Assembly (NCBI RefSeq): GCF_034661235.1 | Contig: NZ_CP141059.1 | Location: 2,231,501-2,295,500, forward strand | DNA: 64,000 bases | DNA from: Nocardioides bizhenqiangii | GTDB taxonomy: Bacteria > Actinomycetota > Actinomycetes > Propionibacteriales > Nocardioidaceae | Direction: 5' to 3' | Shown here: piece by piece, positions 9,498 to 63,207 of the stretch | Numbering within the stretch: the stretch's first letter is position 1 | Layout of the letters: each line of letters begins with the position of its first letter | Program-made: the position numbers and the translations under genes | Notes under the pieces: generated by a model | The model's database searches: none | What the model saw: the letters and a program-made list of their open reading frames with translations, nothing else | What the model was told of the DNA's origin: nothing

Positions 9498-10484
9498 GTG
9501 ACGACGTCCACCGGGCCGGCCGGCTACGACACGACGACCCCTCGCCGGGTGCTCGTGCTCGCCCACACCAGGCGCAGCGACGCCCGTGACGTGGCGCGTG
9601 CGTTCGTCAAGGAGCTCAGCGCGCACGGGATCGTGGTCCGGCTGCTGCGGTCGGAGGCGGCCGACCTCGAGGTCGAGCCCACCGCCTACGACCCGGCCGT
9701 CGAGCTCACCGACTCCGAGACGGACGCCAGCCGCGGCTGCGAGCTCACTGTCGTGATCGGAGGCGACGGGAGCATCCTGCGGGCGGCCGAGGTCACCCAC
9801 AAGCGGCTGACCCCGGTGCTGGGCGTCAACCTCGGACACGTCGGCTTCCTGGCCGAGGCCGAGCACGAGGACGTGGCGGCCACCATCGAAGCGATCGTGG
9901 ACCAGCGCTACACGACCGAGGACCGGCTGACGCTCGACGTCCGGGCCTACCTCGACGGCCAGCTGGTCTACTCGACGTTCGCCGTCAACGAGGCGAGCGT
10001 CGAGAAGGCCGCACGGGAACGGATGCTGGAGGTCGTGGTCGAGATCGACGACCGGCCGCTCTCGCGGTGGGGCTGCGACGGCGTCGTGTGCGCCACGCCC
10101 ACCGGTTCCACGGCCTACAACTTCAGCGCCGGCGGCCCGATCGTCTGGCCCCAGGTCGAGGCGCTCTGCATCGTCCCGCTCAGCGCGCACGCCCTCTTCG
10201 CGCGGCCGATGGTGGTCGCGCCGTCGTCGGTGATCGCGATCGAGGTCCTGGCCGGCAACCAGGGCGCGGGTGTCCTCTGGTGCGACGGGCGACGAAACTT
10301 CGACCTGCCGCCGGGTGCCCGGATCGAGGTCAGCCGCGGACTGCGCCCGGTCCGCCTGGTGCGCCTCCACCAGGCGCCGTTCGCCGACCGGCTGGTGGCG
10401 AAGTTCGGGCTGTCGGTCGAGGGCTGGCGCGGCAGCGCGGAGCGGCGTCGCGAGCACCGCACGACAGGCGACGAGCCTCGGTGA
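9498..10484 (+). CDS. nadK: NAD kinase
   Basis: 328 aa. It phosphorylates NAD to NADP. Diagnostic motifs are GGDGSILRAAE near residue 93, LGVNLGHVGFL, the NEASVEK segment and the long glycine-rich CDGVVCATPTGSTAYN / SAGGPI region that binds the dinucleotide. It is somewhat longer than the E. coli enzyme because of N- and C-terminal tails. GTG start. The gene order tlyA-nadK-recN is standard in Actinobacteria. The 160 bp between its stop and recN shows no small gene or SOS box. Confidence 0.96.
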   Translation: MTTSTGPAGYDTTTPRRVLVLAHTRRSDARDVARAFVKELSAHGIVVRLLRSEAADLEVEPTAYDPAVELTDSETDASRGCELTVVIGGDGSILRAAEVTHKRLTPVLGVNLGHVGFLAEAEHEDVAATIEAIVDQRYTTEDRLTLDVRAYLDGQLVYSTFAVNEASVEKAARERMLEVVVEIDDRPLSRWGCDGVVCATPTGSTAYNFSAGGPIVWPQVEALCIVPLSAHALFARPMVVAPSSVIAIEVLAGNQGAGVLWCDGRRNFDLPPGARIEVSRGLRPVRLVRLHQAPFADRLVAKFGLSVEGWRGSAERRREHRTTGDEPR

Positions 10485-10644
10485 TCACCCCCGGAGGTTC
10501 GCCAACAGTCCCCGCGGCCCAGGCACGCACCTCGCTGCGTTGGCGACGCTTGGTAGACGACTCGGTATGCCGGCGCGCCGCCGCCTTGCGATGCACGCAC
10601 CTGGACCACGGCTACCGCCACCGACCCCCCGGGGGTGACCACCG

Positions 10645-12393
10645 ATGATCGAAGAGCTCCGGATCAGCTCGCTGGGCGTCATCGAGTCGTCCACCCTCGA
10701 GCTGGGTCCCGGGTTCACGGTCGTGACCGGCGAGACCGGCGCCGGGAAGACCATGGTCGTCACCGCCCTCGGGCTGCTGCTCGGCGGTCGCGCCGACAGC
10801 GGTGCCGTCCGCGCCGGCGCCCGGCAGGCCCGGGTGGAGGGCGTCGTCAGCGCCGACCGGCTCGAGGGTCTCGCGTCCGCCGTCGAGGACGCGGGCGGCG
10901 AGGTCGAGGACCACACGGTCGTGCTGGCGCGCAACGTCAGCGCCGAGGGCCGGTCGCGCGCCTACGTCGGCGGTGCCGGCGTCCCCGTGGCGACGCTGGC
11001 CGAGCTCGCCGAGCCGCTCGTCGCCGTCCACGGGCAGTCCGACCAGCACCGGCTGCTCAAGGCCAGCACCCAACGCGCCGCGCTCGACGTCTTCGCCGGT
11101 ACGGCCGCCGCCGGCCCGCTCGAGCACTACCAGCAGCTCTACGAGCGGCTGGTCGCGACCGAGCGCGAGCTGGCCGAGGTCGTGGCCACCGCCAGGGAGC
11201 GCGCCCGCGAGGCGGACCTCCTCAGGTTCGGGGTCGACGAGATCGAAGCCGTCGCACCGCGACCGGGGGAGGACCACGAGCTGGCCGCCGAGGAAGCCCG
11301 GCTCGGTCACGCCGACACCCTGCGCACGGCAGCCGAGCAGGCGCGCGAGGCGCTGTCCAGCGATCACGACGCGCCCGACGCGCTCGGCGCCGTGGCTGCT
11401 GCCCGCGGTCAGCTCGACAGCGTCCGCGAGCACGACCCCGAGGCTGGTGAGCTCGCCGACCGGGTCGCCGAGGTCACCTATCTGCTGTCCGATCTCGCCG
11501 CCGACGTGGCGTCCTACGCCTCGGGCATCGACACCGACCCGGCCCGGCTCGCGGGCGTCTCCGAGCGCCGGGCATCCCTGGTGGCGCTCACCCGCAAGTA
11601 CGGCGACAGCGTCGACGCGGTGCTCGCCTGGGCAGAGCAGGCCACCCGCCGGCTGCTCGAGCTCGACGCGACCGACGAGACCATCGAGCGGCTGGCGGCG
11701 GAGCGGGTGACCCTGAGGAGCGCGCTCGCGGAGGCAGCGGCCATCCTCACCGCCGCCCGGCGCGAGGCTGCCGAACGCCTCTCCACCGCGGTGACCGAGG
11801 AGCTGGCCCTGCTGGCGATGCCGGACGCCCGGATGGAGATCCAGGTCCGGGAGCGCGAGACCCCGGCGCCCCCGGACGCCGGCAACCCGCCGGCCGACGC
11901 GCTGCTCGTCGGTGACCACTGGGTCAGGTTCCACAGCCACGGGGTCGACGAGGTCGAGTTCCTGCTGGCCGCCAACACCGGGTCCGAGCTGCGCCCGTTG
12001 CACAAGGGCGCGTCCGGCGGTGAGCTGTCCCGCGTGATGCTGGCGGTCGAGGTCTGCCTGGCCGACACCCATCCGGTGCCGACGTTCGTCTTCGACGAGG
12101 TCGATGCCGGCGTCGGCGGGGCCGCCGCCGTCGAGATCGGCCGCCGCCTCGCCGCCCTCGCCGAGCACGCGCAGGTCCTGGTCGTCACCCACCTGCCGCA
12201 GGTGGCCGCGTTCGCCGATCGCCACGTCGTGGTCGAGAAGTCCTCCGACGGCACGGTCACCAGCTCCGGGCTCACGACCCTCGACGACGCGGGCCGCGAG
12301 CAGGAGCTGTCCCGGATGCTCGCGGGGATGGCCGGATCCGACTCCGCACTCGCCCACGCCCGCGAGCTGCTCCAGATGGCCCGATCCTCCTGA
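10645..12393 (+). CDS. recN: DNA repair protein RecN
   Basis: 582-aa SMC-like ATPase for double-strand break repair. Walker A is GETGAGKT near residue 30; a long Ala/Glu/Arg-rich coiled-coil region separates it from the ABC signature KGASGGELSRVMLA (~residue 455) and Walker B TFVFDEVDAGVGG (~residue 485). The H-loop segment VVTHLPQVAAFA follows. The length fits the family. No LexA box could be found upstream, unlike imuA' and the HNH/dnaE2 unit in this window. Confidence 0.96.
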   Translation: MIEELRISSLGVIESSTLELGPGFTVVTGETGAGKTMVVTALGLLLGGRADSGAVRAGARQARVEGVVSADRLEGLASAVEDAGGEVEDHTVVLARNVSAEGRSRAYVGGAGVPVATLAELAEPLVAVHGQSDQHRLLKASTQRAALDVFAGTAAAGPLEHYQQLYERLVATERELAEVVATARERAREADLLRFGVDEIEAVAPRPGEDHELAAEEARLGHADTLRTAAEQAREALSSDHDAPDALGAVAAARGQLDSVREHDPEAGELADRVAEVTYLLSDLAADVASYASGIDTDPARLAGVSERRASLVALTRKYGDSVDAVLAWAEQATRRLLELDATDETIERLAAERVTLRSALAEAAAILTAARREAAERLSTAVTEELALLAMPDARMEIQVRERETPAPPDAGNPPADALLVGDHWVRFHSHGVDEVEFLLAANTGSELRPLHKGASGGELSRVMLAVEVCLADTHPVPTFVFDEVDAGVGGAAAVEIGRRLAALAEHAQVLVVTHLPQVAAFADRHVVVEKSSDGTVTSSGLTTLDDAGREQELSRMLAGMAGSDSALAHARELLQMARSS

Positions 12394-46184: not shown

Positions 46185-46808
46185 TTACGTCTGGCGGGAG
46201 CGTGCGGCCGAGCGCACCATGCCGCGCTCGTCGGGGTCGTCGGACCGGTTGAGCACGAGGTCGCCGGCCGTCATCGCCCGGGCCGCCTGGAGCGTGCGGT
46301 CGAGGAAAGCCGCCACGGAGTCGACGTCACCCATCTGCAGGGCGAGTCTGGCGGCGCTGATGCCCTGCACGACGTTCTCGGCGCGCAGCCGGTCGGTGAT
46401 GTCGACGCAGGTGCCCCTCAGCCGCACCGGGGTGCCGTCCTCGTCCTTCACCACCTCGCCGTTCGTGGCTAGATGACGCACCTCGCCGTCCGGCCGCACG
46501 ATCCGCTCCACCATCGACCAGGCACCGCCCGTCTCGTAGACCCGTCGGTGGGTGGCGGTCACGGCGTCCCGGTCGTCCGGGTGCACCATCGACAGGAATC
46601 GGTCGTACGACGCGTTGAACTCCTGCGGCTGGTAGCCGTAGATGCGGTAGAGCTGGTCGGACCAGGAGGACTCGTCGCTCTCGATGTGCCAGTCGAAGTC
46701 GCCCATGTTGGCGACCTGCTGAGCATCGTCGAATCGCGATCGAAGGTCGGCCAGCTGCTGACCGGTCTCCTCCAGTTCCTGGCGCAGCCGTTCGACATTC
46801 CGTTTCAT
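46185..46808 (-). CDS. Orphan PAS-domain protein
   Basis: 207 aa. A short coiled coil (VERLRQELEETGQQLADLRS) leads into one PAS_3-type sensor (DFDWHIESDESSWSDQLYRI, FLSMVHPDDRDAVTATH) with a PAC end (LRGTCVDITDRLRAEN) near residue 140. The last ~60 residues are helical and match no kinase, cyclase or ANTAR output that I know. It probably acts by partner binding. GAGGAGG stands 5 nt before the ATG. Confidence 0.82.
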   Translation of the reverse strand: MKRNVERLRQELEETGQQLADLRSRFDDAQQVANMGDFDWHIESDESSWSDQLYRIYGYQPQEFNASYDRFLSMVHPDDRDAVTATHRRVYETGGAWSMVERIVRPDGEVRHLATNGEVVKDEDGTPVRLRGTCVDITDRLRAENVVQGISAARLALQMGDVDSVAAFLDRTLQAARAMTAGDLVLNRSDDPDERGMVRSAARSRQT

Positions 46809-47480: not shown

Positions 47481-48377
47481 ATGACCAGGCAGGGACTCGT
47501 GATCGGCGCCGGGGGCGTCACGGGGCTGGCGTGGTCGAGCGCCACCCTGGCAGCGCTGGCGCGCACGGCCGACTGGGACCCCCGCGACGCCGACGTGCTG
47601 GTCGGGACCTCGCAAGGCTCCCTGCTGGCGGGGTTGCTCGCGAGCGGGGTGGGCACCGAAGAGCTGGTCCGCTGGTACCGCAAGGAGCTCCCGGACGCGC
47701 ATCCGCTGCTCGCCCGGCCCGCCCCACGGATTCGCGACGACGGTCGGCGTGGGAAGCGTCGGCCGGCGTCCCCGGCGCTGCTCGCCCGCGCGATCGGGCC
47801 CGGACGGATCAGCCCGGTCGCTGCGCTGTCCGGACTGCTCCCGGTGGGCGTCGGGTCGCTCGACGGCTTCCTCGCCCCGCTCGCCGCCCTCGTCGGCACC
47901 GACGGCTGGGTCGAGCACGACGCGACGTGGGTCACCGCCCTCGACTACGACACCGGACGGCGCGTGTGCTTCGGTGCGCCCGGGCAGCCGCGACCTCCCG
48001 TTCTCGAGGCGGTCCGCGCGTCCTGCACGGTCCCCGGCCAGTTCCCGCCGGTGCGTATCGACGGCCGTCGCTACATCGACGGTGGAGCGCACTCGACCAC
48101 GAACGCGGACCTCGCGGTCGACGCCCGGATCGACGAGGTCGTCGTGCTCGCGCCGATGGCGGGCGACGGCGGCGTCCTGCAGCGGGTGGCACGACGGCAG
48201 CTCACCGCCGAGTCCCGCCGGCTGACTGCCGCCGGTGTCACCGTGCGGGTGCTGACACCCACACGGGCCGACCGCGCCTTGATGGCCGCCCACCCACGGG
48301 ACCCGGCCCAGCGTTTCCGTATCTTCGAGGCCGCTCTGGAGAGTGGGCCGGGACGGGTCGCCGCGGCATACCGCTGA
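47481..48377 (+). CDS. Patatin-like phospholipase
   Basis: 298 aa. Oxyanion hole GLVIGAGGVTG at residues ~5-15, nucleophile Ser in VGTSQGSLLAG (G-x-S-x-G), and the catalytic Asp in YIDGGAHS (DGG). This Ser-Asp dyad is the patatin/RssA arrangement. No signal peptide. It begins 15 bp after the GlsB-like gene. Unlike the patatin gene further downstream it has no cyclic-nucleotide domain. Confidence 0.88.
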   Translation: MTRQGLVIGAGGVTGLAWSSATLAALARTADWDPRDADVLVGTSQGSLLAGLLASGVGTEELVRWYRKELPDAHPLLARPAPRIRDDGRRGKRRPASPALLARAIGPGRISPVAALSGLLPVGVGSLDGFLAPLAALVGTDGWVEHDATWVTALDYDTGRRVCFGAPGQPRPPVLEAVRASCTVPGQFPPVRIDGRRYIDGGAHSTTNADLAVDARIDEVVVLAPMAGDGGVLQRVARRQLTAESRRLTAAGVTVRVLTPTRADRALMAAHPRDPAQRFRIFEAALESGPGRVAAAYR

Positions 48378-48411
48378 CCTCCGCGCGCGTCCCCAGAACC
48401 GGTCGCCTGAC

Positions 48412-48448
48412 CTGGACAGGTGGCCAGCAAAGTCTGGACAGGTGGTCA
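48412..48448 (+). repeat. Pair of direct repeats upstream of the small membrane gene
   Basis: CTGGACAGGTGGCCA (48412-48426) and CTGGACAGGTGGTCA (48434-48448) differ at one base and are 22 bp apart, about two helical turns. It may be an operator, or the end of an eroded insertion sequence; some IS481-type ends have similar words, from memory only. Confidence 0.6.
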
Positions 48449-48517
48449 AAATGTCCTCAGTTCTGATGACAGACCCGCAGCGTCCGCCCTACTCTCCGAG
48501 CGGAGGGAGTTACAGAG

Positions 48518-48640
48518 ATGGGGAGTTCTTGGCAGATCCTGGCCGACATCGAGGCGCCCGTGGTGATCACGGTCGTGTCCGCTGTCGGCTTGCTGGTCTT
48601 CTGCGCCTGGGCGGTGTTGTTCCTCGACGACAACCGGTGA
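48518..48640 (+). CDS. Small single-pass membrane protein
   Basis: 40 aa. GGAGGGAG lies upstream of the ATG. The protein starts MGSSWQILADIEAP, has one transmembrane helix (VVITVVSAVGLLVFCAWAVL) and a short polar end LDDNR. Its stop overlaps the GTG of the lipoprotein gene (GTGA), showing translational coupling. I do not recognise it; it could anchor or assist the lipoprotein. Confidence 0.75.
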   Translation: MGSSWQILADIEAPVVITVVSAVGLLVFCAWAVLFLDDNR

Positions 48641-49605
48641 CGCGACTCGGAGCGTTCGCCCTGGCGGTGGCGCTTGGCGCCTGTACGGCCGGCGGGCCCG
48701 ATCGGTCCGCGGCCGAGCCGGAGCGCGCAGCGGCACCCGTTGCCGGGTGTCCGGCGTTCCCGGCCAACAATTGGTGGCACGCGGACATCTCCGACCTGCC
48801 CGTGCATCCGCGGAGCGCGGAGTGGCTGCAGCGGATGTCCCCGCGCAGCGACCTGCACCCTGACTTCGGTCCGTCGTTCGGGGAAGGACCGCCGTACGGC
48901 ATCCCGATCACGGTCGTCGCCGGTGACCACCGCAAGGTCCGCGTCCGCTTCACCTACGCCGGCGAGAGCGACCGGGTGCGCTACCCGCTCGGCCGAGACA
49001 CCCGCATCGAGGGCGGCCGCGGCAGCGACGGTGACCGGCACGCGATCATCGTGGACCGCGATCACTGCCGGCTCTACGAGACATGGGCGACCCGGGTCCG
49101 CGACGGACGCTGGCGCGCCGGGTCGGGCGCCGTGTGGAGCCTCCGGTCCAACCGGCTGCGGCCCGACGGCTGGACGTCGGCTGACGCCGCGGGTCTGCCG
49201 ATCCTGCCCGGACTGCTGAGGTGGCGCGAGGTCCGCGACGGCACCATCGACCACGCGATCCGCTTCACCACCGACGTGACCAGCACCCACCATCTCTGGC
49301 CGGCGCGTCACGACGCCGGGTCGCGGACGTCGCGGAGCTACCCGCCGATGGGGGCGCGGTTCCGGCTGGCGGCCGACTTCGACACCAGCGGTTACGGCCG
49401 CTACGCGCGCCGGGTGATCCGGGCGATGCAGACTTACGGCCTCGTCCTCGCCGACAACGGCAGTCCGTGGTTCTTCCAGGGCGAGCAGCACCGGAGGTGG
49501 CCAGCGCGGTTGATCGAGGAGCTCAAGCAGATCCCGGCAGACGAGTTCGTGGCCGTGGACACTTCCGGGCTCCAGGTCGACCCGGACAGCGCGGCTGTGA
49601 ATTGA
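48637..49605 (+). CDS. Secreted lipoprotein of unknown function
   Basis: 322 aa. Short signal peptide with lipobox LGAC (Cys ~15). The mature protein contains NNWWHADISDLPVHPRS, DFGPSFGEGPPYGIP and SNRLRPDGWTSADAAGLP and is rich in Trp, His and Arg. It reads as one globular extracytoplasmic domain with many aromatic residues, perhaps a carbohydrate-binding or hydrolytic fold, but I cannot name a family or active site. Coupled to the 40-aa membrane protein. The alternative upstream starts would destroy the signal peptide. Confidence 0.8.
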   Translation: MTRLGAFALAVALGACTAGGPDRSAAEPERAAAPVAGCPAFPANNWWHADISDLPVHPRSAEWLQRMSPRSDLHPDFGPSFGEGPPYGIPITVVAGDHRKVRVRFTYAGESDRVRYPLGRDTRIEGGRGSDGDRHAIIVDRDHCRLYETWATRVRDGRWRAGSGAVWSLRSNRLRPDGWTSADAAGLPILPGLLRWREVRDGTIDHAIRFTTDVTSTHHLWPARHDAGSRTSRSYPPMGARFRLAADFDTSGYGRYARRVIRAMQTYGLVLADNGSPWFFQGEQHRRWPARLIEELKQIPADEFVAVDTSGLQVDPDSAAVN

Positions 49606-49654: not shown

Positions 49655-51457
49655 ATGAGCCTGCCCGGATTCTTCGACGCTCTCTCCGCCGAGCACAGGG
49701 ACACCGTCGCCAAGCTGCTGACCGAGGTGGAGTTCGAACCCGGCACCACGATCTTCACCGAGGGCGACGAGGGCGATGCGGCGTACTTCATCGACGAGGG
49801 GGAGGTCCGCATCGAGCTCGAGCTGCCCGAGGTCGACACCGAGTCGGTGCTCCGCTACGAGGGTCCCGGCTCGACCCTGGGCGAGGTCGCCCTCCTCGAC
49901 CGGCTCCCGCGCTCCGCGACCGCGGTCGCGGACACACGGGTACAGGCCCGGACGATCACCACCGCGAGCCTCGACGAGCTCGCCGCCCGAGACCCCGGGG
50001 CCGCCCTCGGGGTGACTCAGGAGCTCGCACGGGACGCGACGGCCAAGCTGCGACGCCTGACCGAGCAGGCGTCCGACCTGATGTTCGCCGCTGCTCCGGA
50101 CCCGGTGGTCGACGAGCTAGTCAGCCGAGCGGCAGCCGCCCAGGCGCAGTTCGCGGACTGGCCCGAGGACCGTGTCGATGCGCTGCTCGGCCGACTGACC
50201 GCAGTCTTCCTCGAGCACGCGGCGCCCCTGGCCGAGGCGACGGTGGAGGAGACCCACGTCGGCAACGCCGCCGACAAGACGCTCAAGAACATGGTCGCGG
50301 CCCAAGGGGTCTACGACTCGCTGGTCGGGCAGGTCGGTGCCGGGCCGCTCGGCACCGACGACCTGACCCAGGTCACGGAGATCGCCGAGGCGGTCGGCGT
50401 GATCTTCGGTCTGGTGCCGGTCACCAACCCGGTGGCGACGGCGTACTTCAAGACCCTGGTCAGCCTCAAGTCGCGCAACGCGGTCATCCTCAGCTTCCAC
50501 CACGCCGTGCTGGGCGTCGGCAACCGCGTCGGCGAGCTGATCCACCAGGTGCTGAGCGAGGAGGGCGCGCCCGCGGACCTGGTGCTCTGGGTCAAGAAGC
50601 GGGGGAGCCGCAAGCTGACACAGCAGTTCATGAGCCACCCCGGCGTCGGTCTGGTCCTCGCGACCGGGGGCGCTGCGATGGTGCAGGCGGCCTACAGCTC
50701 GGGTACGCCGGCGCTCGGGGTCGGTCCCGGCAACGCTCCGTGCTGGATCGCCCCCGACGCCGATCTCGCCACGGCCGCGAGCTCGATCGTGATGTCCAAG
50801 TCGTTCGACAACGGTGTCATCTGCGGCGCCGAGCACAACCTGGTCGTCGACCGCTCGGTGCGCGACGACTTCGTCGCCCGGCTCGAGAGCCAGGGCGCCG
50901 CCGTCCTCACCCCGCAGGAGGCGGAGGCCTTCCTCGCGCTCGCGATCGACCCCGCGACCAACCGGTTCCGCAGCGAGACGGTCGGGCAGTCAGCCGCGAC
51001 CATCGCCGGGTTCACCGGTATCAGCCGGCCGTTCGAGATCAAGGTGATCGTGGTCCCGGCGACCTGGGACGGCGAGGACACCCCGCTGGCGGGCGAGAAG
51101 ATGACCCCGGTGCTGTCGCTCTTCGACGTCTCCGGGGACGACGAGGCGATCGCCTTCTCCCGCCGCCTCCTCGGGTTCATGGGTAGCGGGCACACATCGA
51201 TCGTGCACAGCGCCGACCCGGACCGGATCGCCCGGTTCGGCGCGGCGATGCCGACCAGCCGGATCCTGGCCAACTCGCCCGGGGCACATGGCGTCTTCGG
51301 CGTCACGACCGGCCTGGTGCCGTCCCTCACCCTCGGGTGCGGCACGTACGGGGGCAACTCGACCACCGACAACGTCAGCTTCAAGAACCTCCGCAACATC
51401 AAGCGCCTCGCCCGACTGGTCCAGCCCGGAGGTGGCAGTGCGGACAATCCGGGCTGA
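49655..51457 (+). CDS. Cyclic-nucleotide-binding domain fused to CoA-acylating aldehyde dehydrogenase
   Basis: 600 aa. Residues ~1-125 are a cNMP-binding domain (GTTIFTEGDEGDAAYFIDEG) with phosphate-binding cassette GEVALLDRLPRSAT: E77 and R86 conserved. Residues ~150-600 resemble the acetaldehyde dehydrogenase half of AdhE/EutE: VTNPVATAYFKTLVSLKSRN, GVGPGNAP, catalytic Cys in NGVICGAEHN, and TYGGNSTTDNVS near the end. It would interconvert an acyl-CoA and an aldehyde with NAD(H), gated by cyclic nucleotide. No DNA-binding HTH. It overlaps the next gene by 20 bp. Confidence 0.88.
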   Translation: MSLPGFFDALSAEHRDTVAKLLTEVEFEPGTTIFTEGDEGDAAYFIDEGEVRIELELPEVDTESVLRYEGPGSTLGEVALLDRLPRSATAVADTRVQARTITTASLDELAARDPGAALGVTQELARDATAKLRRLTEQASDLMFAAAPDPVVDELVSRAAAAQAQFADWPEDRVDALLGRLTAVFLEHAAPLAEATVEETHVGNAADKTLKNMVAAQGVYDSLVGQVGAGPLGTDDLTQVTEIAEAVGVIFGLVPVTNPVATAYFKTLVSLKSRNAVILSFHHAVLGVGNRVGELIHQVLSEEGAPADLVLWVKKRGSRKLTQQFMSHPGVGLVLATGGAAMVQAAYSSGTPALGVGPGNAPCWIAPDADLATAASSIVMSKSFDNGVICGAEHNLVVDRSVRDDFVARLESQGAAVLTPQEAEAFLALAIDPATNRFRSETVGQSAATIAGFTGISRPFEIKVIVVPATWDGEDTPLAGEKMTPVLSLFDVSGDDEAIAFSRRLLGFMGSGHTSIVHSADPDRIARFGAAMPTSRILANSPGAHGVFGVTTGLVPSLTLGCGTYGGNSTTDNVSFKNLRNIKRLARLVQPGGGSADNPG

Positions 51458-53246
51458 GCCGCGCCACGCGGTCGGCGCACTGGCGAGCTGCACGGTCTTC
51501 CAGGGCATGCCGCCGGAGCGCCTCGAGGAGCTCGCCCGGACGATGGAGTGGACGGTGCTCGACCGGGGGGAGGTGCTGATGCGCACCGGAGATCCGGGCG
51601 ACGACCTCTACGTCGTCGCCGGCGGGCGACTCAATGTCGCGGTCGCGGGCGCCGACGGCACCGAGACGATCGTCCGCGAGATCGGCCGCGGCTCCACGGT
51701 GGGGGAGGTGGCGCTGCTGACCGGATCACGGCGTACCGCCACCGTCCGGGCGGTGCGCGACACGCTCGTCGGCCGGCTGTCCCGCGCGTCGTTCGAGCAC
51801 CTGATGGAGGAGGATCCTCGCGGGGCGCTCGAGCTCACCCGGGTGGTGGCCGGCTGGCTGCTGCCCGGAAGTCCGCCCCGTCGCAACAGCGCGCCGGCAA
51901 CGGTCGCACTGGTTCCTGCCGCCGGCATCGACGCGCGGGAGGTGGCGGCCCGGATCGGGGCCGCCATCCCACTCCAGGCGCTCGACGCGCCGGCCGTGGA
52001 TCAGGCGGTCGGCGAAGGTGCCGCCCGGTCGCCGGCCGGCTCCCCGCACGAGCGCGCGCTCGCCGACTACCTGGACGCCGCCGAGGTCGAGCACTCACTC
52101 ATTCTGCTGACAGCCGATCCCGAGCCGGACTCGCCGTGGACCGAGCGCGTGCTCCGGCGGGCCGACCGGGTCCTGGTCGCCGCGCCAGGGGGAGTGCGTC
52201 CCGACCGGGTGACGCGCGCGCAGCTGATCCGGATCGCCCGGACGGCGCCGGAGGTCCCTCGCGAGCTGGTGTTCGTCCGCCAGTCCGGGCAGCCGGCGCC
52301 GGGGATCACTGCGCTCTGGCGCGAAGCCGGTGGCTTCACCCGCCAGTCGCATGTGCTGGCGGACGCCGACGCGGACTGGCAGCGGCTCGGTCGGCACCTG
52401 ACGGGCAGGGCAACCGGCCTGGTCCTCGGCGGCGGCGGCGCGCGGGGGTTCGCGCACATCGGCGTGCTGCGTGCGCTGATCGAGTCCGGCATCGAGATCG
52501 ACCGGGTGGGCGGGAGCAGCATGGGCGCGCTGGTCGGAGGCCTGTGGTCGATCGGGCTCGCTCCCGACGAGATCGTCGAGGCCAACCGTGAGATCTGGCA
52601 CGAGATCCGGCCGCTGAAGGGCTTCACGTTTCCCTTCGTCGCGCTGCACGGCTCGGGGCGCAGCCGGACGGCGATGCAGGGGTGCTTCGGTGACCGCCGG
52701 ATCGAGGACCAGGCCCGTGACTTCTTCTGCACGTCGACCAACCTGACCCGCAACCGGAGCATGGTCCACGCGAGCGGCCCGCTAGCACGCTACGTGCTGG
52801 CGAGCGTGTCGATCCCGGGCATCGTGGCCCCGGTCATCGACCGCGGCGAGCTGCTCGTGGACGGCGGCGTGCTCGACAACCTGCCGGTCGACCCGATGAG
52901 CAGCACCGGCGCGGGCACGATCTACGCGAGTGACGTCTCACCGCCGCGGACGTTCTCCGTCGGCCTGCACTGGGAGGACGCACCCGGGCTCATCGACGTC
53001 ATCCGCCATCGGGTTCGTCGCGGCGCGGGGACCGCATTCCCCAGCATCGTGCGGATCCTGGAGCGCACCGCGACCCTGGCCAGCGACCGCGCTGCCTCGA
53101 CCCAGCGGTTGCGCGACGACGTGCGCTTCATCGCGCCGCCGGTCGGGCCGTACGACACCCTGGACATGTCACGTCTGGACGAGATCGTCGAGGTCGGCTA
53201 CCGGTCGGCGCTCGAGGCGATCTCCCAGTGGTCGGAGGAGAAGTGA
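51438..53246 (+). CDS. Cyclic-nucleotide-binding patatin-like phospholipase (NTE type)
   Basis: 602 aa. N-terminal cNMP-binding domain (residues ~15-135) with cassette GEVALLTGSRRTAT retaining E90 and R99. A middle region (~145-315) has an NTE-like cryptic Rossmann pattern. The C-terminal patatin domain has VLGGGGARGFAHIGVL (oxyanion), GGSSMGALVGG (nucleophile Ser) and LVDGGVLDNLPVD (catalytic Asp). It is similar in layout to neuropathy-target-esterase-like lysophospholipases. GTG start chosen from GGAGG 5 nt upstream; another in-frame GTG lies two codons earlier. Confidence 0.9.
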   Translation: MRTIRAEPRHAVGALASCTVFQGMPPERLEELARTMEWTVLDRGEVLMRTGDPGDDLYVVAGGRLNVAVAGADGTETIVREIGRGSTVGEVALLTGSRRTATVRAVRDTLVGRLSRASFEHLMEEDPRGALELTRVVAGWLLPGSPPRRNSAPATVALVPAAGIDAREVAARIGAAIPLQALDAPAVDQAVGEGAARSPAGSPHERALADYLDAAEVEHSLILLTADPEPDSPWTERVLRRADRVLVAAPGGVRPDRVTRAQLIRIARTAPEVPRELVFVRQSGQPAPGITALWREAGGFTRQSHVLADADADWQRLGRHLTGRATGLVLGGGGARGFAHIGVLRALIESGIEIDRVGGSSMGALVGGLWSIGLAPDEIVEANREIWHEIRPLKGFTFPFVALHGSGRSRTAMQGCFGDRRIEDQARDFFCTSTNLTRNRSMVHASGPLARYVLASVSIPGIVAPVIDRGELLVDGGVLDNLPVDPMSSTGAGTIYASDVSPPRTFSVGLHWEDAPGLIDVIRHRVRRGAGTAFPSIVRILERTATLASDRAASTQRLRDDVRFIAPPVGPYDTLDMSRLDEIVEVGYRSALEAISQWSEEK

Positions 53247-54886
53247 TGACGGCAACCGTGCAGCGCCCGGTGCGGGTGGTGTGTCTCGGCGGCGGATGGA
53301 CCGCGATCTACCTGGCGCGCTCGCTGAAGAAGGCGATCAGGCGAGGCGACGTGGAGCTGACGATCGTCAGCCGCGACAACTTCCACACCTTCCATGGCTT
53401 CATCGCCGAGATGCTCACCGGCAAAGTGTCGCCGACCAACATCACCAGCCCGTCGCGGCGGTTGTTCCCGCCTGCCCGGTTCCACAACGCCGAGATCAAG
53501 TCCGTCGACGTCGAGCAGCAGACGGTGACCACCTCGCGGCTGCTGGACGGCAAGGAGAAGGTGCTGGAGTACGACCACCTCGTGGTCGCCCTGGGCTCGA
53601 TCGACGACCTCTCCCGCTATCCCGGGATCGCCCAGCACGCGTTCCAGCTCAAGACCTTCGCCGACAACTTCAAGGTGAGGAACCACCTGCTGGCCATGCT
53701 CGAGATGGCCGAGATCGAGACCGATCCGGTCGAGCGCCAGCGGCTGCTGACCTTCATCGTCGTCGGCGGCGGCTTCGGAGGCGTCGAGGTCGCCACCGAG
53801 CTGATGGACTACTTCCGGCGGCTGGCGAGCAAGGAGTACCCCGGGATCGACCCGGCCGAGCTCCGGGTGCTGCTGGTGCACTCGGGCGAGAGGATCCTGC
53901 CCGAGCTCGCCGCCCGGCAGCCGAAGCTCATCGGCTACGCCGAGCGGACCATCGCCAAGGGCGGGGTCGAGGTGCTCACCCGCACGCGCATCACCGCCGC
54001 GACCCGGGACGAGGCGATCCTCTCCGACGGCACCGTCGTCCAGACCCGTTCGATCATCAGCTCGTCGGGGACGTCGTTGTCGCCGCTGCTTGACCTGATG
54101 CCCTACGAGCGCGACGAGCGCGGGCGGATCATCACCGACGTGAACGTCCAGGTGCCCGGCACCGACAACGTGTGGGCGGCCGGCGACTGCGCCGCCGTAC
54201 CCCATCCGCAGGGTGGCACCTGCCCGGCCGTGGCCATCTATGCGATGTACGGCGGCCGCCAGATCGGCCGCAACATCGTCCGGCAGATCGAGGGGAAGCC
54301 CCTCAAGCCGTTCAAGTTCGCCGGGCTCGGCGACGCCTGCTCGCTGGGCCGCCGCAAGGCGGTCTCCCACCTGAAGGGCATGCGGTTCTACGGGTTGCCG
54401 GCCTGGATCCTGTGGCGCCTGTTCTTCTGGTGGTTCGTCCCCACCTGGGAGCGCAAGGCGGACATCGCGTTCGACTGGCTGATGGCGCCGTTCTTCGGCC
54501 GCGACATCGTGGGCGTGCGGGTCGCGACCCCGTTCGGCCTGCGCCGCGAGCACTACGAGACCGGACAGGCCGTGGTGCGCCAGGGCGAGGTGGGTCAGCA
54601 GATCTACGTGATCGCCAGTGGCACGGCCGACATCATCCGCGAGACGCCCGACGGCGACGTGCTGGTGACCACCTTGAGCGCGGGCGACCACTTCGGCGAG
54701 AAGGCGGTCTTCGAGCAGACCCGGCGGACCGCAACCGTGCGCGCGACCTCCGCGCTGGAGGTGCTGTCACTCGGGCAGACCGAGGCGCGCGCCCTCGCCG
54801 AGACCATCCAGACCTTCGGCGCGGCCGTCCGGGAGCTGCCGAACGAGCCCGAGCACAACCCAGCGCCGATCACCCCGGCTGGGTGA
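53246..54886 (+). CDS. NDH-2-like FAD oxidoreductase with C-terminal cyclic-nucleotide-binding domain
   Basis: 546 aa. FAD motif VCLGGGWTAIYLAR at ~13-25, NAD motif VVGGGFGGVEVATEL at ~172-186, and the second FAD site VWAAGDCAAVPHP at ~309. A hydrophobic segment AWILWRLFFWWFVPTW (~386-401) would attach it to the membrane, as in type II NADH dehydrogenases. Residues ~430-546 are a cNMP-binding domain with FGEKAVFEQTRRTAT, keeping E485 and R494. GGAGGAG precedes the ATG, which overlaps the patatin stop by 1 bp (TGATG). Quinone use is inferred. Confidence 0.88.
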   Translation: MTATVQRPVRVVCLGGGWTAIYLARSLKKAIRRGDVELTIVSRDNFHTFHGFIAEMLTGKVSPTNITSPSRRLFPPARFHNAEIKSVDVEQQTVTTSRLLDGKEKVLEYDHLVVALGSIDDLSRYPGIAQHAFQLKTFADNFKVRNHLLAMLEMAEIETDPVERQRLLTFIVVGGGFGGVEVATELMDYFRRLASKEYPGIDPAELRVLLVHSGERILPELAARQPKLIGYAERTIAKGGVEVLTRTRITAATRDEAILSDGTVVQTRSIISSSGTSLSPLLDLMPYERDERGRIITDVNVQVPGTDNVWAAGDCAAVPHPQGGTCPAVAIYAMYGGRQIGRNIVRQIEGKPLKPFKFAGLGDACSLGRRKAVSHLKGMRFYGLPAWILWRLFFWWFVPTWERKADIAFDWLMAPFFGRDIVGVRVATPFGLRREHYETGQAVVRQGEVGQQIYVIASGTADIIRETPDGDVLVTTLSAGDHFGEKAVFEQTRRTATVRATSALEVLSLGQTEARALAETIQTFGAAVRELPNEPEHNPAPITPAG

Positions 54887-55775
54887 ACCGGATCTTCGTC
54901 TCCCCGATAACCAGCTCGTCGCCGTCGACCAGCTCCTGCGCGATGGTGATCCGCTCGCCGTTGACCGTGGTGCCGTGGGTGGACTGGAGGTCGGTGAGCA
55001 CGAACCCGGCCGGCGTGCCGGTGATCGCGCAGTGGTGACGGCTCACCAGGTTGTCGTTGAGGACGAGGTCGTTGTCGGGCATCCGGCCGATCCGCAGGCC
55101 GTGCTCGTCGAGAGGCAGGGCCCGGCCGTCCTCCATCACCAGCTCAGCGGCGGAGACTGCGGCCGGCCGGTAGAGAGTGCGCGCCACCGCCGCCGCGGCC
55201 GCACCCGACGTGCCGAGCGACTTGATCCGGGGGAACGACGTCAGCATCCCCTCGGCACGGACCTGGAAGAGCCGCTCCTCCTCGGCCAGGTCCTTCAGGG
55301 GATGCGTGCCGAGGTCGGTGATCTCGAGTCCCCCCGGCCGGGTGGCGAAGTCCTCGACCACCGCCTGCGACACCACCACCTGGCCCCCGTTGGCGGTCCC
55401 CATGATCCGCGCCGCCCGGTGCACGTCGTACCCGACGAAGCTGCCGTCGTACGACGACACCACGCCGACGTGGATGCCGGTCCGGGACCGGATCGGGCGA
55501 CCGCCGGGCCAGGTCGCGGCGGTCAGCTCGCGCTGCGCCTGGATCGCGGCGGCGACCGCGTCGGGCACCGAGGGGAACACGACGAAGAACCCGTCACCGG
55601 CGGTGTCGACCTCGTGACCGTTGTGGTCCTTCCACGCCCGGCGGCAGGTCTCCCGGTGGAGCCGGAGGACGTCCTTCCACTGGTCGCCGAGCCGGTTGGC
55701 GTGCAGCGTCGAGCCCTCGATGTCCGAGAACAACATCGCCAGGCGCTGCTGGGACAGCTCGCTCACCTTCGACAT
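54870..55775 (-). CDS. Class III nucleotide cyclase fused to an FHA domain
   Basis: 301 aa. The cyclase domain (residues ~10-170) has the metal-binding Asp residues in LFSDIEGSTL and TAGDGFFVVF and the transition-state Arg in DVHRAARIMG. The usual substrate-recognition Lys before GD is replaced (EVDTAGD) and the Asn before the Arg is His, a variant form seen in many actinobacterial cyclases. An FHA domain (~225-301) with RIGRMPDND, SRHH and STHGTTVNG follows and would bind phosphothreonine. It converges on the cNMP-domain operon, overlapping its end by 17 bp. Confidence 0.9.
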   Translation of the reverse strand: MSKVSELSQQRLAMLFSDIEGSTLHANRLGDQWKDVLRLHRETCRRAWKDHNGHEVDTAGDGFFVVFPSVPDAVAAAIQAQRELTAATWPGGRPIRSRTGIHVGVVSSYDGSFVGYDVHRAARIMGTANGGQVVVSQAVVEDFATRPGGLEITDLGTHPLKDLAEEERLFQVRAEGMLTSFPRIKSLGTSGAAAAAVARTLYRPAAVSAAELVMEDGRALPLDEHGLRIGRMPDNDLVLNDNLVSRHHCAITGTPAGFVLTDLQSTHGTTVNGERITIAQELVDGDELVIGETKIRFTQPG

Positions 55776-55822
55776 CCTAGAGTTCGGTTCATGCGGGCCA
55801 CGCAGCAACGCATCGGGAAGGC

Positions 55823-56590
55823 ATGGAACAGATGGACAAGGTGGTAGCAAGTGCCGCGGAGGCGGTCGCGGACATTCCGGACGGGGCCACTGTGGCGGTG
55901 GGCGGTTTCGGGTTGTGCGGGATCCCGTCGGTCCTGATCGACGCTCTCCTGACGCAGGGTGCGACGGACCTGGAGGCGGTCTCCAACAACTGCGGCGTAG
56001 ACGAATGGGGCCTGGGGCGGTTGCTGTTCGCCCGCCGGCTACGCCGGATGGTGTCGTCGTACGTCGGAGAGAACAAGGAGTTCGCCCGGCAGTACCTCTC
56101 CGGTGAGCTGGAGGTGGAGCTGACCCCGCAGGGCACCTTGGCGGAGCGGATGCGCGCCGGAGGGTCGGGGATCCCGGCGTTCTTCACCGCAACCGGGGTC
56201 GGCACCCAGGTGGCGGACGGCGGCCTGCCGTGGCGGTACGACGACTCCGGGGCCGTGGTGGTGTCGTCACCCCCGAAGGAGGTGCGGTCATTCGGCGGCC
56301 GCGAGTACGTGCTGGAGGAGGCGATCGTCGCGGACTTCGGGATCGTGCGCGCCTGGAAGGGCGACCGGCACGGCAACCTGGTCTACCGGGACTCGGCGCG
56401 CAACTTCAACCCGTTGGCCGCGATGTGCGGCCGCATCACGATCGCCGAGGTGGAGGAGCTGGTGGAGCCGGGGGAGCTGGACCCGAACAACATCCACACC
56501 CCTGGGGTGTTCGTGCATCGGGTCGTTGCCCTGACGCCCGAGCAGGCTGCGGACAAGCGGATCGAGAAGAGGACGGTGACCACCCCGTGA
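55823..56590 (+). CDS. scoA: 3-oxoacid CoA-transferase subunit A
   Basis: 255 aa. It transfers CoA between an acyl-CoA (often succinyl-CoA) and a 3-oxoacid. [16 protein letters not shown] is the family I CoA-transferase N-terminal motif, followed by [13 protein letters not shown] and [17 protein letters not shown] at 55823 is used; the ATG three codons later (MDKVVA) is equally possible. It overlaps subunit B by 4 bp. Confidence 0.93.
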
Positions 56591-62697: not shown

Positions 62698-63207
62698 ATG
62701 CCCTTCTGCACCGCTTGCGGTCGGCAGAACCCGGACGACGCCCGGTTCTGCTCCCAGTGCGGGACCCGCCTGGTCGCACCGGAGCCGACCATCGATCCGA
62801 CTGACGCCACCGCGACCATCAGCTTCACCGGCGGCGACAAGGTCGAGACCTCCGACCGGCAGCTCAGCCCGGTCGACGCGGCCGCGGTCGACGCGCTGCC
62901 CGTGGGCTCCGCGCTCCTCGTCGTCCAGAAGGGTCCGGGTGCCGGCAGCCGGTTCCTCCTCGACCAGGACGTCGTCAACGCCGGCCGTCACCCCGACAGC
63001 GAGATCTTCCTCGACGACGTCACCGTGTCCCGCCGGCATGCGGTCTTCAACCGCGCCGGTGACGGCTACACCGTGAGCGACGTCGGAAGCCTCAACGGCA
63101 CCTACGTCAACCGCGACCGCATCGAGACGATCGCGCTCAAGGACAGCGACGAGGTCCAGATCGGCAAGTACCGGTTGGTCTTCTTCGCCGGGCACGAGGA
63201 CGCCTGA
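62698..63207 (+). CDS. garA: FHA-domain regulator GarA/OdhI with N-terminal zinc ribbon
   Basis: 169 aa. The FHA core is close to mycobacterial GarA: VGSALLVVQKGPGAGSRFLL, AGRHPDSEIFLDDVTVSRRH and VGSLNGTYVNRD. Known GarA/OdhI inhibits 2-oxoglutarate dehydrogenase when unphosphorylated and is switched off by kinase phosphorylation of an N-terminal ETTS motif. Here the N-terminus is a zinc ribbon (CTACG, then CSQCG) and the ETTS position reads TDATATISF, so the phosphosite may differ. GAGGAG precedes the ATG. Confidence 0.93.
   Translation: MPFCTACGRQNPDDARFCSQCGTRLVAPEPTIDPTDATATISFTGGDKVETSDRQLSPVDAAAVDALPVGSALLVVQKGPGAGSRFLLDQDVVNAGRHPDSEIFLDDVTVSRRHAVFNRAGDGYTVSDVGSLNGTYVNRDRIETIALKDSDEVQIGKYRLVFFAGHEDA

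What the first reader, a model, noticed from the sequence alone, without database searches (positions are those of the whole stretch)
49655..55775. Candidate undescribed system: three enzymes each with its own cyclic-nucleotide-binding domain, beside a cyclase-FHA gene
Consecutive overlapping genes encode a cNMP-domain aldehyde dehydrogenase, a cNMP-domain patatin lipase and an NDH-2-like oxidoreductase with a C-terminal cNMP domain. None has an HTH, so control would act on the enzymes. All three retain the Glu and Arg of the phosphate-binding cassette, so all should bind ligand. The adjacent convergent gene could make the ligand and, through FHA, respond to a Ser/Thr kinase. Together they would couple fatty acid release, acyl-CoA/aldehyde conversion and NADH oxidation to one second messenger. 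I know single examples of such fusions but no described operon with three.
Basis: partly seen in the sequence, partly recalled or inferred. Interest (0 to 1): 0.8.

Follow-up and report, generated by a model that had tools for sequence, protein, structure and literature searches.

The report
Shared messenger switch on three enzymes
Three overlapping bacterial genes encode metabolic enzymes that each carry their own cyclic-nucleotide-binding domain, the same trio sits together in distant bacteria, and one second messenger would likely switch lipid breakdown, aldehyde conversion and NADH oxidation together.

Summary
Overlapping genes A (CNB + AdhE/EutE-type acylating aldehyde dehydrogenase), B (CNB + NTE-type patatin) and C (NDH-2-like flavoprotein + CNB) sit beside convergent D (class III cyclase-like domain + FHA). 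They hold 3 of the genome's 7 CNB matches. The set is not unique: among 12 genomes with a full CNB-ALDH of this family, 11 have an NDH-2-like gene in the cluster (10 with CNB) and 10 a CNB-patatin, in two actinobacterial classes and, by record titles, an Anaerolineae MAG and the alphaproteobacterium Albimonas. It is patchy (3 of 214 congeners). All 33 CNB domains of these clusters keep the phosphate-binding Gly-Glu and Arg. D accompanies the trio in the window and 3 of 3 congeners but lacks both ATP-specifying residues, so its product is uncertain. Other cyclases lie near NDH2-CNB genes at six further loci, which supports local ligand synthesis, though the control test is weak (Fisher p = 0.079). 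C lacks two NDH-2 motifs, so its acceptor is unknown. Best reading: a conserved module whose enzymes are predicted to be switched together by one cyclic nucleotide. Ligand, sign of control and substrates are untested. Ten paper searches found no described counterpart.

The parts
49655..51457 (+). Gene A: N-terminal CNB domain (about 49727-49993) + AdhE/EutE-type acylating aldehyde dehydrogenase; catalytic Cys390
51432..53246 (+). Gene B: N-terminal CNB domain (about 51558-51815) + NTE P-loop-like region + patatin phospholipase (about 52419-52895)
   Evidence: Pfam PF00027 76.7, PF24179 39.9, PF01734 109.1 bits; GGGGARG 333, GGSSMG 360, VDGGV 476. An alternative GTG start lies at 51438
53228..54886 (+). 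Gene C: NDH-2-like FAD/NADH flavoprotein + C-terminal CNB domain (about 54548-54802); likely start ATG 53246
54870..55850 (-). Gene D: class III cyclase-like domain (about 55296-55751) + FHA domain (about 54903-55094); ATG start possible at 55775
   Evidence: Pfam PF00211 34.7 and PF00498 68.9 bits; nearest solved relative Ma1120, E 2e-18; orthologs 86-88% identical beside the trio in L178, L179, L180

Best explanation
Three overlapping genes encode an acylating-aldehyde-dehydrogenase-like, a patatin-lipase-like and an NDH-2-like protein, each fused to its own cyclic-nucleotide-binding domain, and one cyclic nucleotide is predicted to bind all three and to switch lipid release, aldehyde/acyl-CoA conversion and NADH oxidation together. 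Shown: the fusions, their overlap, intact phosphate-binding cassettes, intact catalytic Cys (A) and Ser/Asp motifs (B), and conservation of the trio in other classes and phyla. Inferred: B would free fatty acids from phospholipid; an acyl-CoA synthetase would activate them (AMP-binding enzymes lie in the Albimonas cluster); A would interconvert aldehyde and acyl-CoA with NAD(H), most likely in the oxidative direction; C would reoxidise NADH with an unknown acceptor. Inferred with less support: the ligand would come from a local cyclase (D here, other cyclases elsewhere), and D's FHA would let a phosphothreonine signal set its level or location. Because D lacks the Lys/Asp pair that selects ATP, the messenger in this genus may not be cAMP.
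For: 3 of 7 genomic CNB matches are these neighbours. Of 12 genomes with a full CNB-ALDH, 11 have an NDH2-like gene in the cluster (10 with CNB) and 10 a CNB-patatin. PBC Gly-Glu and Arg kept in 33 of 33 CNB domains of these clusters. One cluster adds a CNB-acyl-CoA dehydrogenase/oxidase (L120) and one has two AMP-binding enzymes (L035), which fits acyl metabolism. Cyclases lie near NDH2-CNB at six further loci, and FHA is fused to NDH2-CNB at two. D is kept beside the trio in the window and 3 of 3 congeners.
Against: No binding or assay data. D lacks both ATP-specifying residues, and three of the six other cyclases (L122, L153, L154) lack the Lys too. No cyclase was seen in the fetched stretches of L119, L120/L177, L121, L176, L034, L033 or L035. 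Cyclase enrichment against the control is not significant (5 of 26 against 2 of 40 loci, p = 0.079). C lacks the NDH-2 quinone-site and WxxG motifs. The trio is rare: 3 of 214 congeners. L033 has A alone; distant CNB-ALDHs in L036, L038, L040 have no trio; a strong C match in G1305 and all weaker C matches have no full CNB-ALDH in the same genome except G453.
Confidence: 0.55

Rival explanations
1. The trio is a cyclic-nucleotide-controlled redox or fermentation valve rather than a lipid pathway: A works on short acyl-CoA/aldehyde as AdhE and EutE do, C balances NADH, and B remodels membrane phospholipid separately.
For: A's nearest solved relatives are short-chain acylating dehydrogenases and AdhE; C is NADH-linked by family; NTE-type patatins are phospholipases (recalled).
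Against: CNB-acyl-CoA dehydrogenase/oxidase in L120 and AMP-binding enzymes in L035 point to acyl chains.
Confidence: 0.25
2. The enzymes read a global cyclic nucleotide made by other cyclases; D is a degenerate cyclase that acts only as an FHA scaffold or pseudo-enzyme.
For: No cyclase seen near several clusters; D's substrate residues are not those of an adenylyl cyclase.
Against: D stays beside the trio in the window and 3 of 3 congeners, while the CoA-transferase gene on D's other side was not matched in two of those three stretches; metal Asp residues and the transition-state Arg are kept in 4 of 4.
Confidence: 0.3
3. The CNB domains here sense another small molecule or serve only assembly; there is no common messenger, and clustering reflects joint transfer of unrelated fusions.
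For: Non-cNMP ligands of CNB folds are known (CooA haem; passages of PMC2246266); patchy distribution.
Against: Canonical PBC in 33 of 33; the same three enzyme types in changing gene order across classes and phyla.
Confidence: 0.15

Closest known systems
Mycobacterial acetyltransferase Pat (CNB + acetyltransferase; PDB 4ava, 4oll; role recalled)
   Same: A bacterial enzyme with its own N-terminal CNB domain; appears among solved CNB relatives of B
   Different: Single enzyme, protein acetylation; no cluster of CNB enzymes
Neuropathy target esterase / CNB-patatin family
   Same: CNB + NTE P-loop-like region + patatin, as in B; 118 of the 120 best relatives of B listed carry the CNB
   Different: Known as a stand-alone lipase (recalled); here tied to A and C
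[quoted passage not shown]
   Same: Fold, FAD and NADH motifs; EF-hand NDH-2s show a precedent for second-messenger control (passages of PMC5299459)
   Different: C has a C-terminal CNB and lacks AQxAxQ and the Trp of WxxG
AdhE / EutE acylating aldehyde dehydrogenases
   Same: Enzyme half and catalytic Cys of A
   Different: N-terminal CNB, no alcohol dehydrogenase half
Bact_Pyrredox CNB family (PMC2246266, section 6)
   Same: Pyridine-nucleotide oxidoreductase joined to C-terminal CNB
   Different: That family has tandem CNBs and a GEMGLISGRRRGATVRA-type PBC; C has one CNB with GEKAVFEQTRRTATVRA
Ma1120 class III cyclase
   Same: Closest solved relative of D's cyclase domain
   Different: D has Asp and Ser where Ma1120 has Lys101 and Asp157, and carries an FHA domain

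Membership tests
Canonical cNMP-binding CNB domain | PBC Gly-Glu and Arg | tested here: met
   A, B and C, and 33 of 33 CNB domains of the 12 clusters
Canonical cNMP-binding CNB domain | beta2-beta3 loop Gly that goes with the Arg (passages of PMC2246266) | tested here: met
   Window domains read GDEGDAAY, GDPGDDLY, GEVGQQIY; four rows elsewhere differ at this Gly (A and B of L119, A and B of L035)
Canonical cNMP-binding CNB domain | Binds a cyclic nucleotide | not testable with these tools
   Needs purified protein
CoA-acylating aldehyde dehydrogenase (AdhE/EutE type) | Catalytic Cys in the family motif and full-length homology | tested here: met
   Cys390 invariant in 17 of 17; aligns with AdhE 152-588, E 8e-90
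AdhE (bifunctional) | C-terminal alcohol dehydrogenase half; curated NCBIfam cut-off | tested here: not met
   A ends after the ALDH domain; 439 bits against cut-off 951
NTE-type patatin | CNB, NTE P-loop-like region, oxyanion GGGGxRG-type motif, GxSxG, DGG | tested here: met
   (patatin motif definitions recalled)
NDH-2 | Fold and FAD/NADH motifs (GxGxxG/A, YD, GD, GxGxxGxE) | tested here: met
NDH-2 | Quinone-site motif AQxAxQ (or AQxAxR, APxAxQ) | tested here: not met
   AIYAMY at the aligned place
NDH-2 | WxxG near NADH | tested here: not met
   Ser at the Trp place; no Trp there in the 17 aligned relatives
Class III adenylyl cyclase (D) | Two metal Asp and transition-state Arg | tested here: met
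   Kept in 4 of 4 orthologs
Class III adenylyl cyclase (D) | ATP-specifying Lys and Asp | tested here: not met
   Asp and Ser in 4 of 4 (residues from passages of PMC4215837); His at the usual Asn place
Class III adenylyl cyclase (D) | Makes a cyclic nucleotide | not testable with these tools
   Needs an assay
Bact_Pyrredox CNB family (PMC2246266) | Tandem CNB domains after the oxidoreductase | tested here: not met
   One PF00027 stretch in C
FHA phosphothreonine reader (D) | FHA domain above Pfam cut-off | tested here: met
   PF00498 68.9 bits, cut-off 20.7; what it binds was not tested

The most novel reading that the evidence does not exclude
A second-messenger system that works without transcription: one cyclic nucleotide, possibly not cAMP, made by a local and swappable cyclase under phosphothreonine control, sets a whole small pathway because every enzyme of it (lipase, aldehyde/acyl-CoA enzyme, NADH oxidoreductase, in one lineage an acyl-CoA dehydrogenase) carries its own copy of the receptor; the module spread across phyla and gains enzymes as they acquire the same domain.
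Probability: 0.38. Interest if true: 0.85.

Novelty: new variant of a known kind. Interest (0 to 1): 0.7.

Why it matters
Bacterial cyclic nucleotides are known mainly through CRP-type regulators, with few directly controlled enzymes (recalled). A conserved cluster in which every enzyme has its own receptor domain would be a small metabolic pathway tuned directly by a second messenger, and would give concrete targets for the many CNB domains without DNA-binding partners. It also makes testable whether cyclase-like domains with altered substrate residues still make a signal.

Tried and rejected
Rejected: 'three unrelated fusions side by side in one genome'. The first relatives search suggested it (0 of 57 other genomes matched A's CNB half; most matches to C stop before its CNB, though one in G041 spans 8-523 of 552 at 33% with a stop inside and was not followed up), but the protein search and the wider genome searches overturned it. 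Rejected: calling C an NDH-2 without qualification, and D an adenylyl cyclase.

Led nowhere or weak: the genome-contig scan with A1 was swamped by plain AdhE-type hits; of 80 loci kept, 7 (L033-L038, L040) match from before residue 20, so the CNB half too, and I analysed 6 of these (not L037). The Alphaproteobacteria sample gave 0 of 385 at E <= 1e-130; the Albimonas genome itself does not pass there because its NDH2 lacks the CNB. The plasmid hit in Embleya gave an ALDH match and no CNB. The AlphaFold models rest on 17 sequences (mean pLDDT 76.2 and 68.0, pTM 0.59 and 0.57), too weak to place the CNB against the active site; the structural match lists were filled by the enzyme domains, so the CNB fold was not tested by them. 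Distance correlations between A, B and C mostly reflect species relatedness, and the set meant as one per genus still held two genomes of one genus, so I do not use them. Poisson adjacency (5 of 26 within 3.5 kb, expected 0.47 at the control rate, P 1.3e-4; 0.029 at an upper rate) was framed after seeing the data; first used 3 kb, which L154 misses by 43 bp, so its count of 5 was wrong there. L153 and L154 look closely related, so the 5 may be 4 independent cases.

Paper searches: (ten). Seen: listings; passages of PMC4215837 and PMC5299459; passages and section 6 of PMC2246266. Only open-licence PMC papers are held.

Full report
What is there. A (49655-51457), B (51432-53246) and C (53228-54886) lie on the plus strand and overlap; D (54870-55850) converges on C. 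Pfam gives CNB + aldehyde dehydrogenase for A, CNB + NTE P-loop + patatin for B, Pyr_redox_2 + NDH2_C + CNB for C, and Guanylate_cyc + FHA for D. The genome (4.55 Mb, one contig) has 7 matches to the CNB family, 3 of them here. The organism is probably a Nocardioides: the named relatives nearest to A and C are from that genus (85-88% identity), and the contig lengths of three congeners with the cluster equal those listed for N. silvaticus, N. immobilis and N. pelophilus.

What the enzymes are. A's enzyme half matches AdhE, EutE-type and succinyl-CoA-type dehydrogenases, with the catalytic Cys invariant in 17 of 17 aligned sequences. B has the patatin motifs. C has the NDH-2 fold and FAD/NADH motifs but AIYAMY where NDH-2 has AQxAxQ, and Ser for the Trp of WxxG (motifs from passages of PMC5299459), so its electron acceptor is open.

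Protein families. Of the 120 best relatives listed, 118 for A carry both CNB and ALDH, 119 for C carry the CNB and 118 for B carry the CNB. Source names put A or C relatives in Actinomycetota, Alphaproteobacteria, Thermomicrobiales, Gemmatimonadota and Vicinamibacterales. Read by eye, at least 20 contig lengths are exactly equal between the A and C lists, which points to shared contigs. Further fusions: CNB-ALDH-SDR (P0084) and ketopantoate-reductase-like + NDH2 + CNB (P0188 and five others of about 911 aa).

Conservation of the cluster. Twelve genomes hold a full-length CNB-ALDH of this family. The window and three congeners (L178, L179, L180) have A-B-C-D in the same order. L119 has C-A-B; L121, L122 and L176 have B-C-A; L120 has C-A on one strand, a CNB-acyl-CoA dehydrogenase/oxidase on the other, then a CNB-patatin. 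L034 (Anaerolineae MAG, 3.6-kb contig) has C-A and is cut at both ends. L035 (Albimonas isolate, 331-kb contig) has A, an AMP-binding enzyme, an NDH-2-like protein without CNB, a CNB-patatin and another AMP-binding enzyme. L033 (Acidobacteria MAG) has A alone; that genome has a more distant NDH2-CNB elsewhere. So 11 of 12 have an NDH2-like gene in the cluster (10 with CNB) and 10 of 12 a CNB-patatin. Seven of the twelve were found through A (three, one, three): 6 of these 7 have the NDH2-like gene (5 with CNB) and 5 of 7 the CNB-patatin. Four were found through strong matches to C (over 780 bits), and all four have A and B. A further strong C match, G1305 (697 bits), has no full CNB-ALDH. Distant CNB-ALDHs of Bermanella and Oleispira (L036, L038, L040) have no trio and their genomes no NDH2-CNB match at E <= 1e-60.

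Distribution is patchy: 3 of 214 other congeners for A and 5 of 395 other actinobacterial genomes for C, one of them (G083) of the second kind. This second NDH2-CNB subfamily (35-42% identity in its enzyme part) accounts for 9 of 250 other genomes in the sample around G454 and, around G453, for G453 and 9 of 246 others.

Ligand side. All 33 CNB domains of the 12 clusters keep PBC Gly-Glu and Arg. D is closest to Ma1120 among solved structures. It keeps the metal Asp residues and the Arg but has Asp for Lys101, Ser for Asp157 and His for Ala164, in 4 of 4 orthologs. In Ma1120, changing Lys101 and Asp157 together lowers adenylyl and raises guanylyl cyclase activity (passages of PMC4215837), so D's acidic-plus-small pair could favour GTP; this is a guess.

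Cyclases near NDH2-CNB elsewhere: GAF-cyclase next to the patatin in L122; FHA-GAF-cyclase divergent by 239 bp in L162; cyclase at 588 bp in L159; response-regulator cyclases in L153 and L154 (these two look related); cyclase-kinase-PASTA in L123, whose NDH2-CNB carries two FHA domains; L147 has FHA-NDH2-CNB but no cyclase seen. L123 has the ATP-selecting Lys and Asp, L159 and L162 have the Lys, L122, L153 and L154 do not. Control: with a profile built only from the genus, L123 and Ma1120, 5 of 26 NDH2-CNB loci (406 kb) against 2 of 40 control stretches (780 kb) on the same contigs as the clusters had a cyclase; Fisher p = 0.079. The four loci used to build the profile were left out of the 26. 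The association is suggestive, not proven.

How it likely works. Inference from families: B releases fatty acids, they are activated to acyl-CoA, A interconverts acyl-CoA and aldehyde with NAD(H), C reoxidises NADH. A cyclic nucleotide would set all of them through their own CNB domains, with no DNA-binding step. D, or in other lineages another cyclase, would supply it, and FHA would connect to Ser/Thr phosphorylation. The order of reactions, direction of A, acceptor of C and sign of control are untested.

Known or new. Single CNB-enzyme fusions are known: Pat, NTE (both recalled), and the tandem-CNB Bact_Pyrredox family in PMC2246266. Ten searches of the held papers returned nothing on a multi-enzyme CNB cluster; subscription journals are mostly not held. 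I rate it a new variant of a known kind.

Noticed in passing
L120:10546-13992 (+): A 1148-aa acyl-CoA dehydrogenase/oxidase with its own N-terminal CNB domain lies between the NDH2-CNB/CNB-ALDH pair and the CNB-patatin.
   Followed up: partly
L123:4454-10850: A cyclase-Ser/Thr kinase-PASTA protein is divergent from a CNB protein of 529 aa and an NDH2-CNB with two C-terminal FHA domains: cyclase, kinase, FHA and CNB in one place.
   Followed up: partly
L154:5783-6853, L164:7560-8438, L161:3591-4133, L123:6730-8319: Extra CNB proteins next to second-subfamily NDH2-CNB genes; Pfam names no partner domain in them.
   Followed up: partly
P0188, P0191, P0198, P0222, P0232, P0240: Triple fusions of about 911 aa: ketopantoate-reductase-like + NDH2-like + CNB (domains of P0188 checked).
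   Followed up: partly
window 46185-46808 (-): A 207-aa PAS protein whose relative in L178 (18256-19501) goes on into a response-regulator domain; the window copy looks shorter.
   Followed up: partly
window 62698-63207 (+): A second FHA protein in the window, with an N-terminal Cys-rich stretch resembling a zinc ribbon.
   Followed up: no
window 48343-49605 (+): An upstream gene with no Pfam match that is kept beside the trio in three congeners, 73-84% identical.
   Followed up: partly
L036:4942-7392 and 9959-11719: In a Bermanella MAG a distant CNB-ALDH lies near a Na+/H+ exchanger with its own CNB domain.
   Followed up: no
L192:13796-14965: One of the two control cyclase hits, a short ORF, itself lies about 300 bp from a 140-aa CNB ORF.
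   Followed up: no
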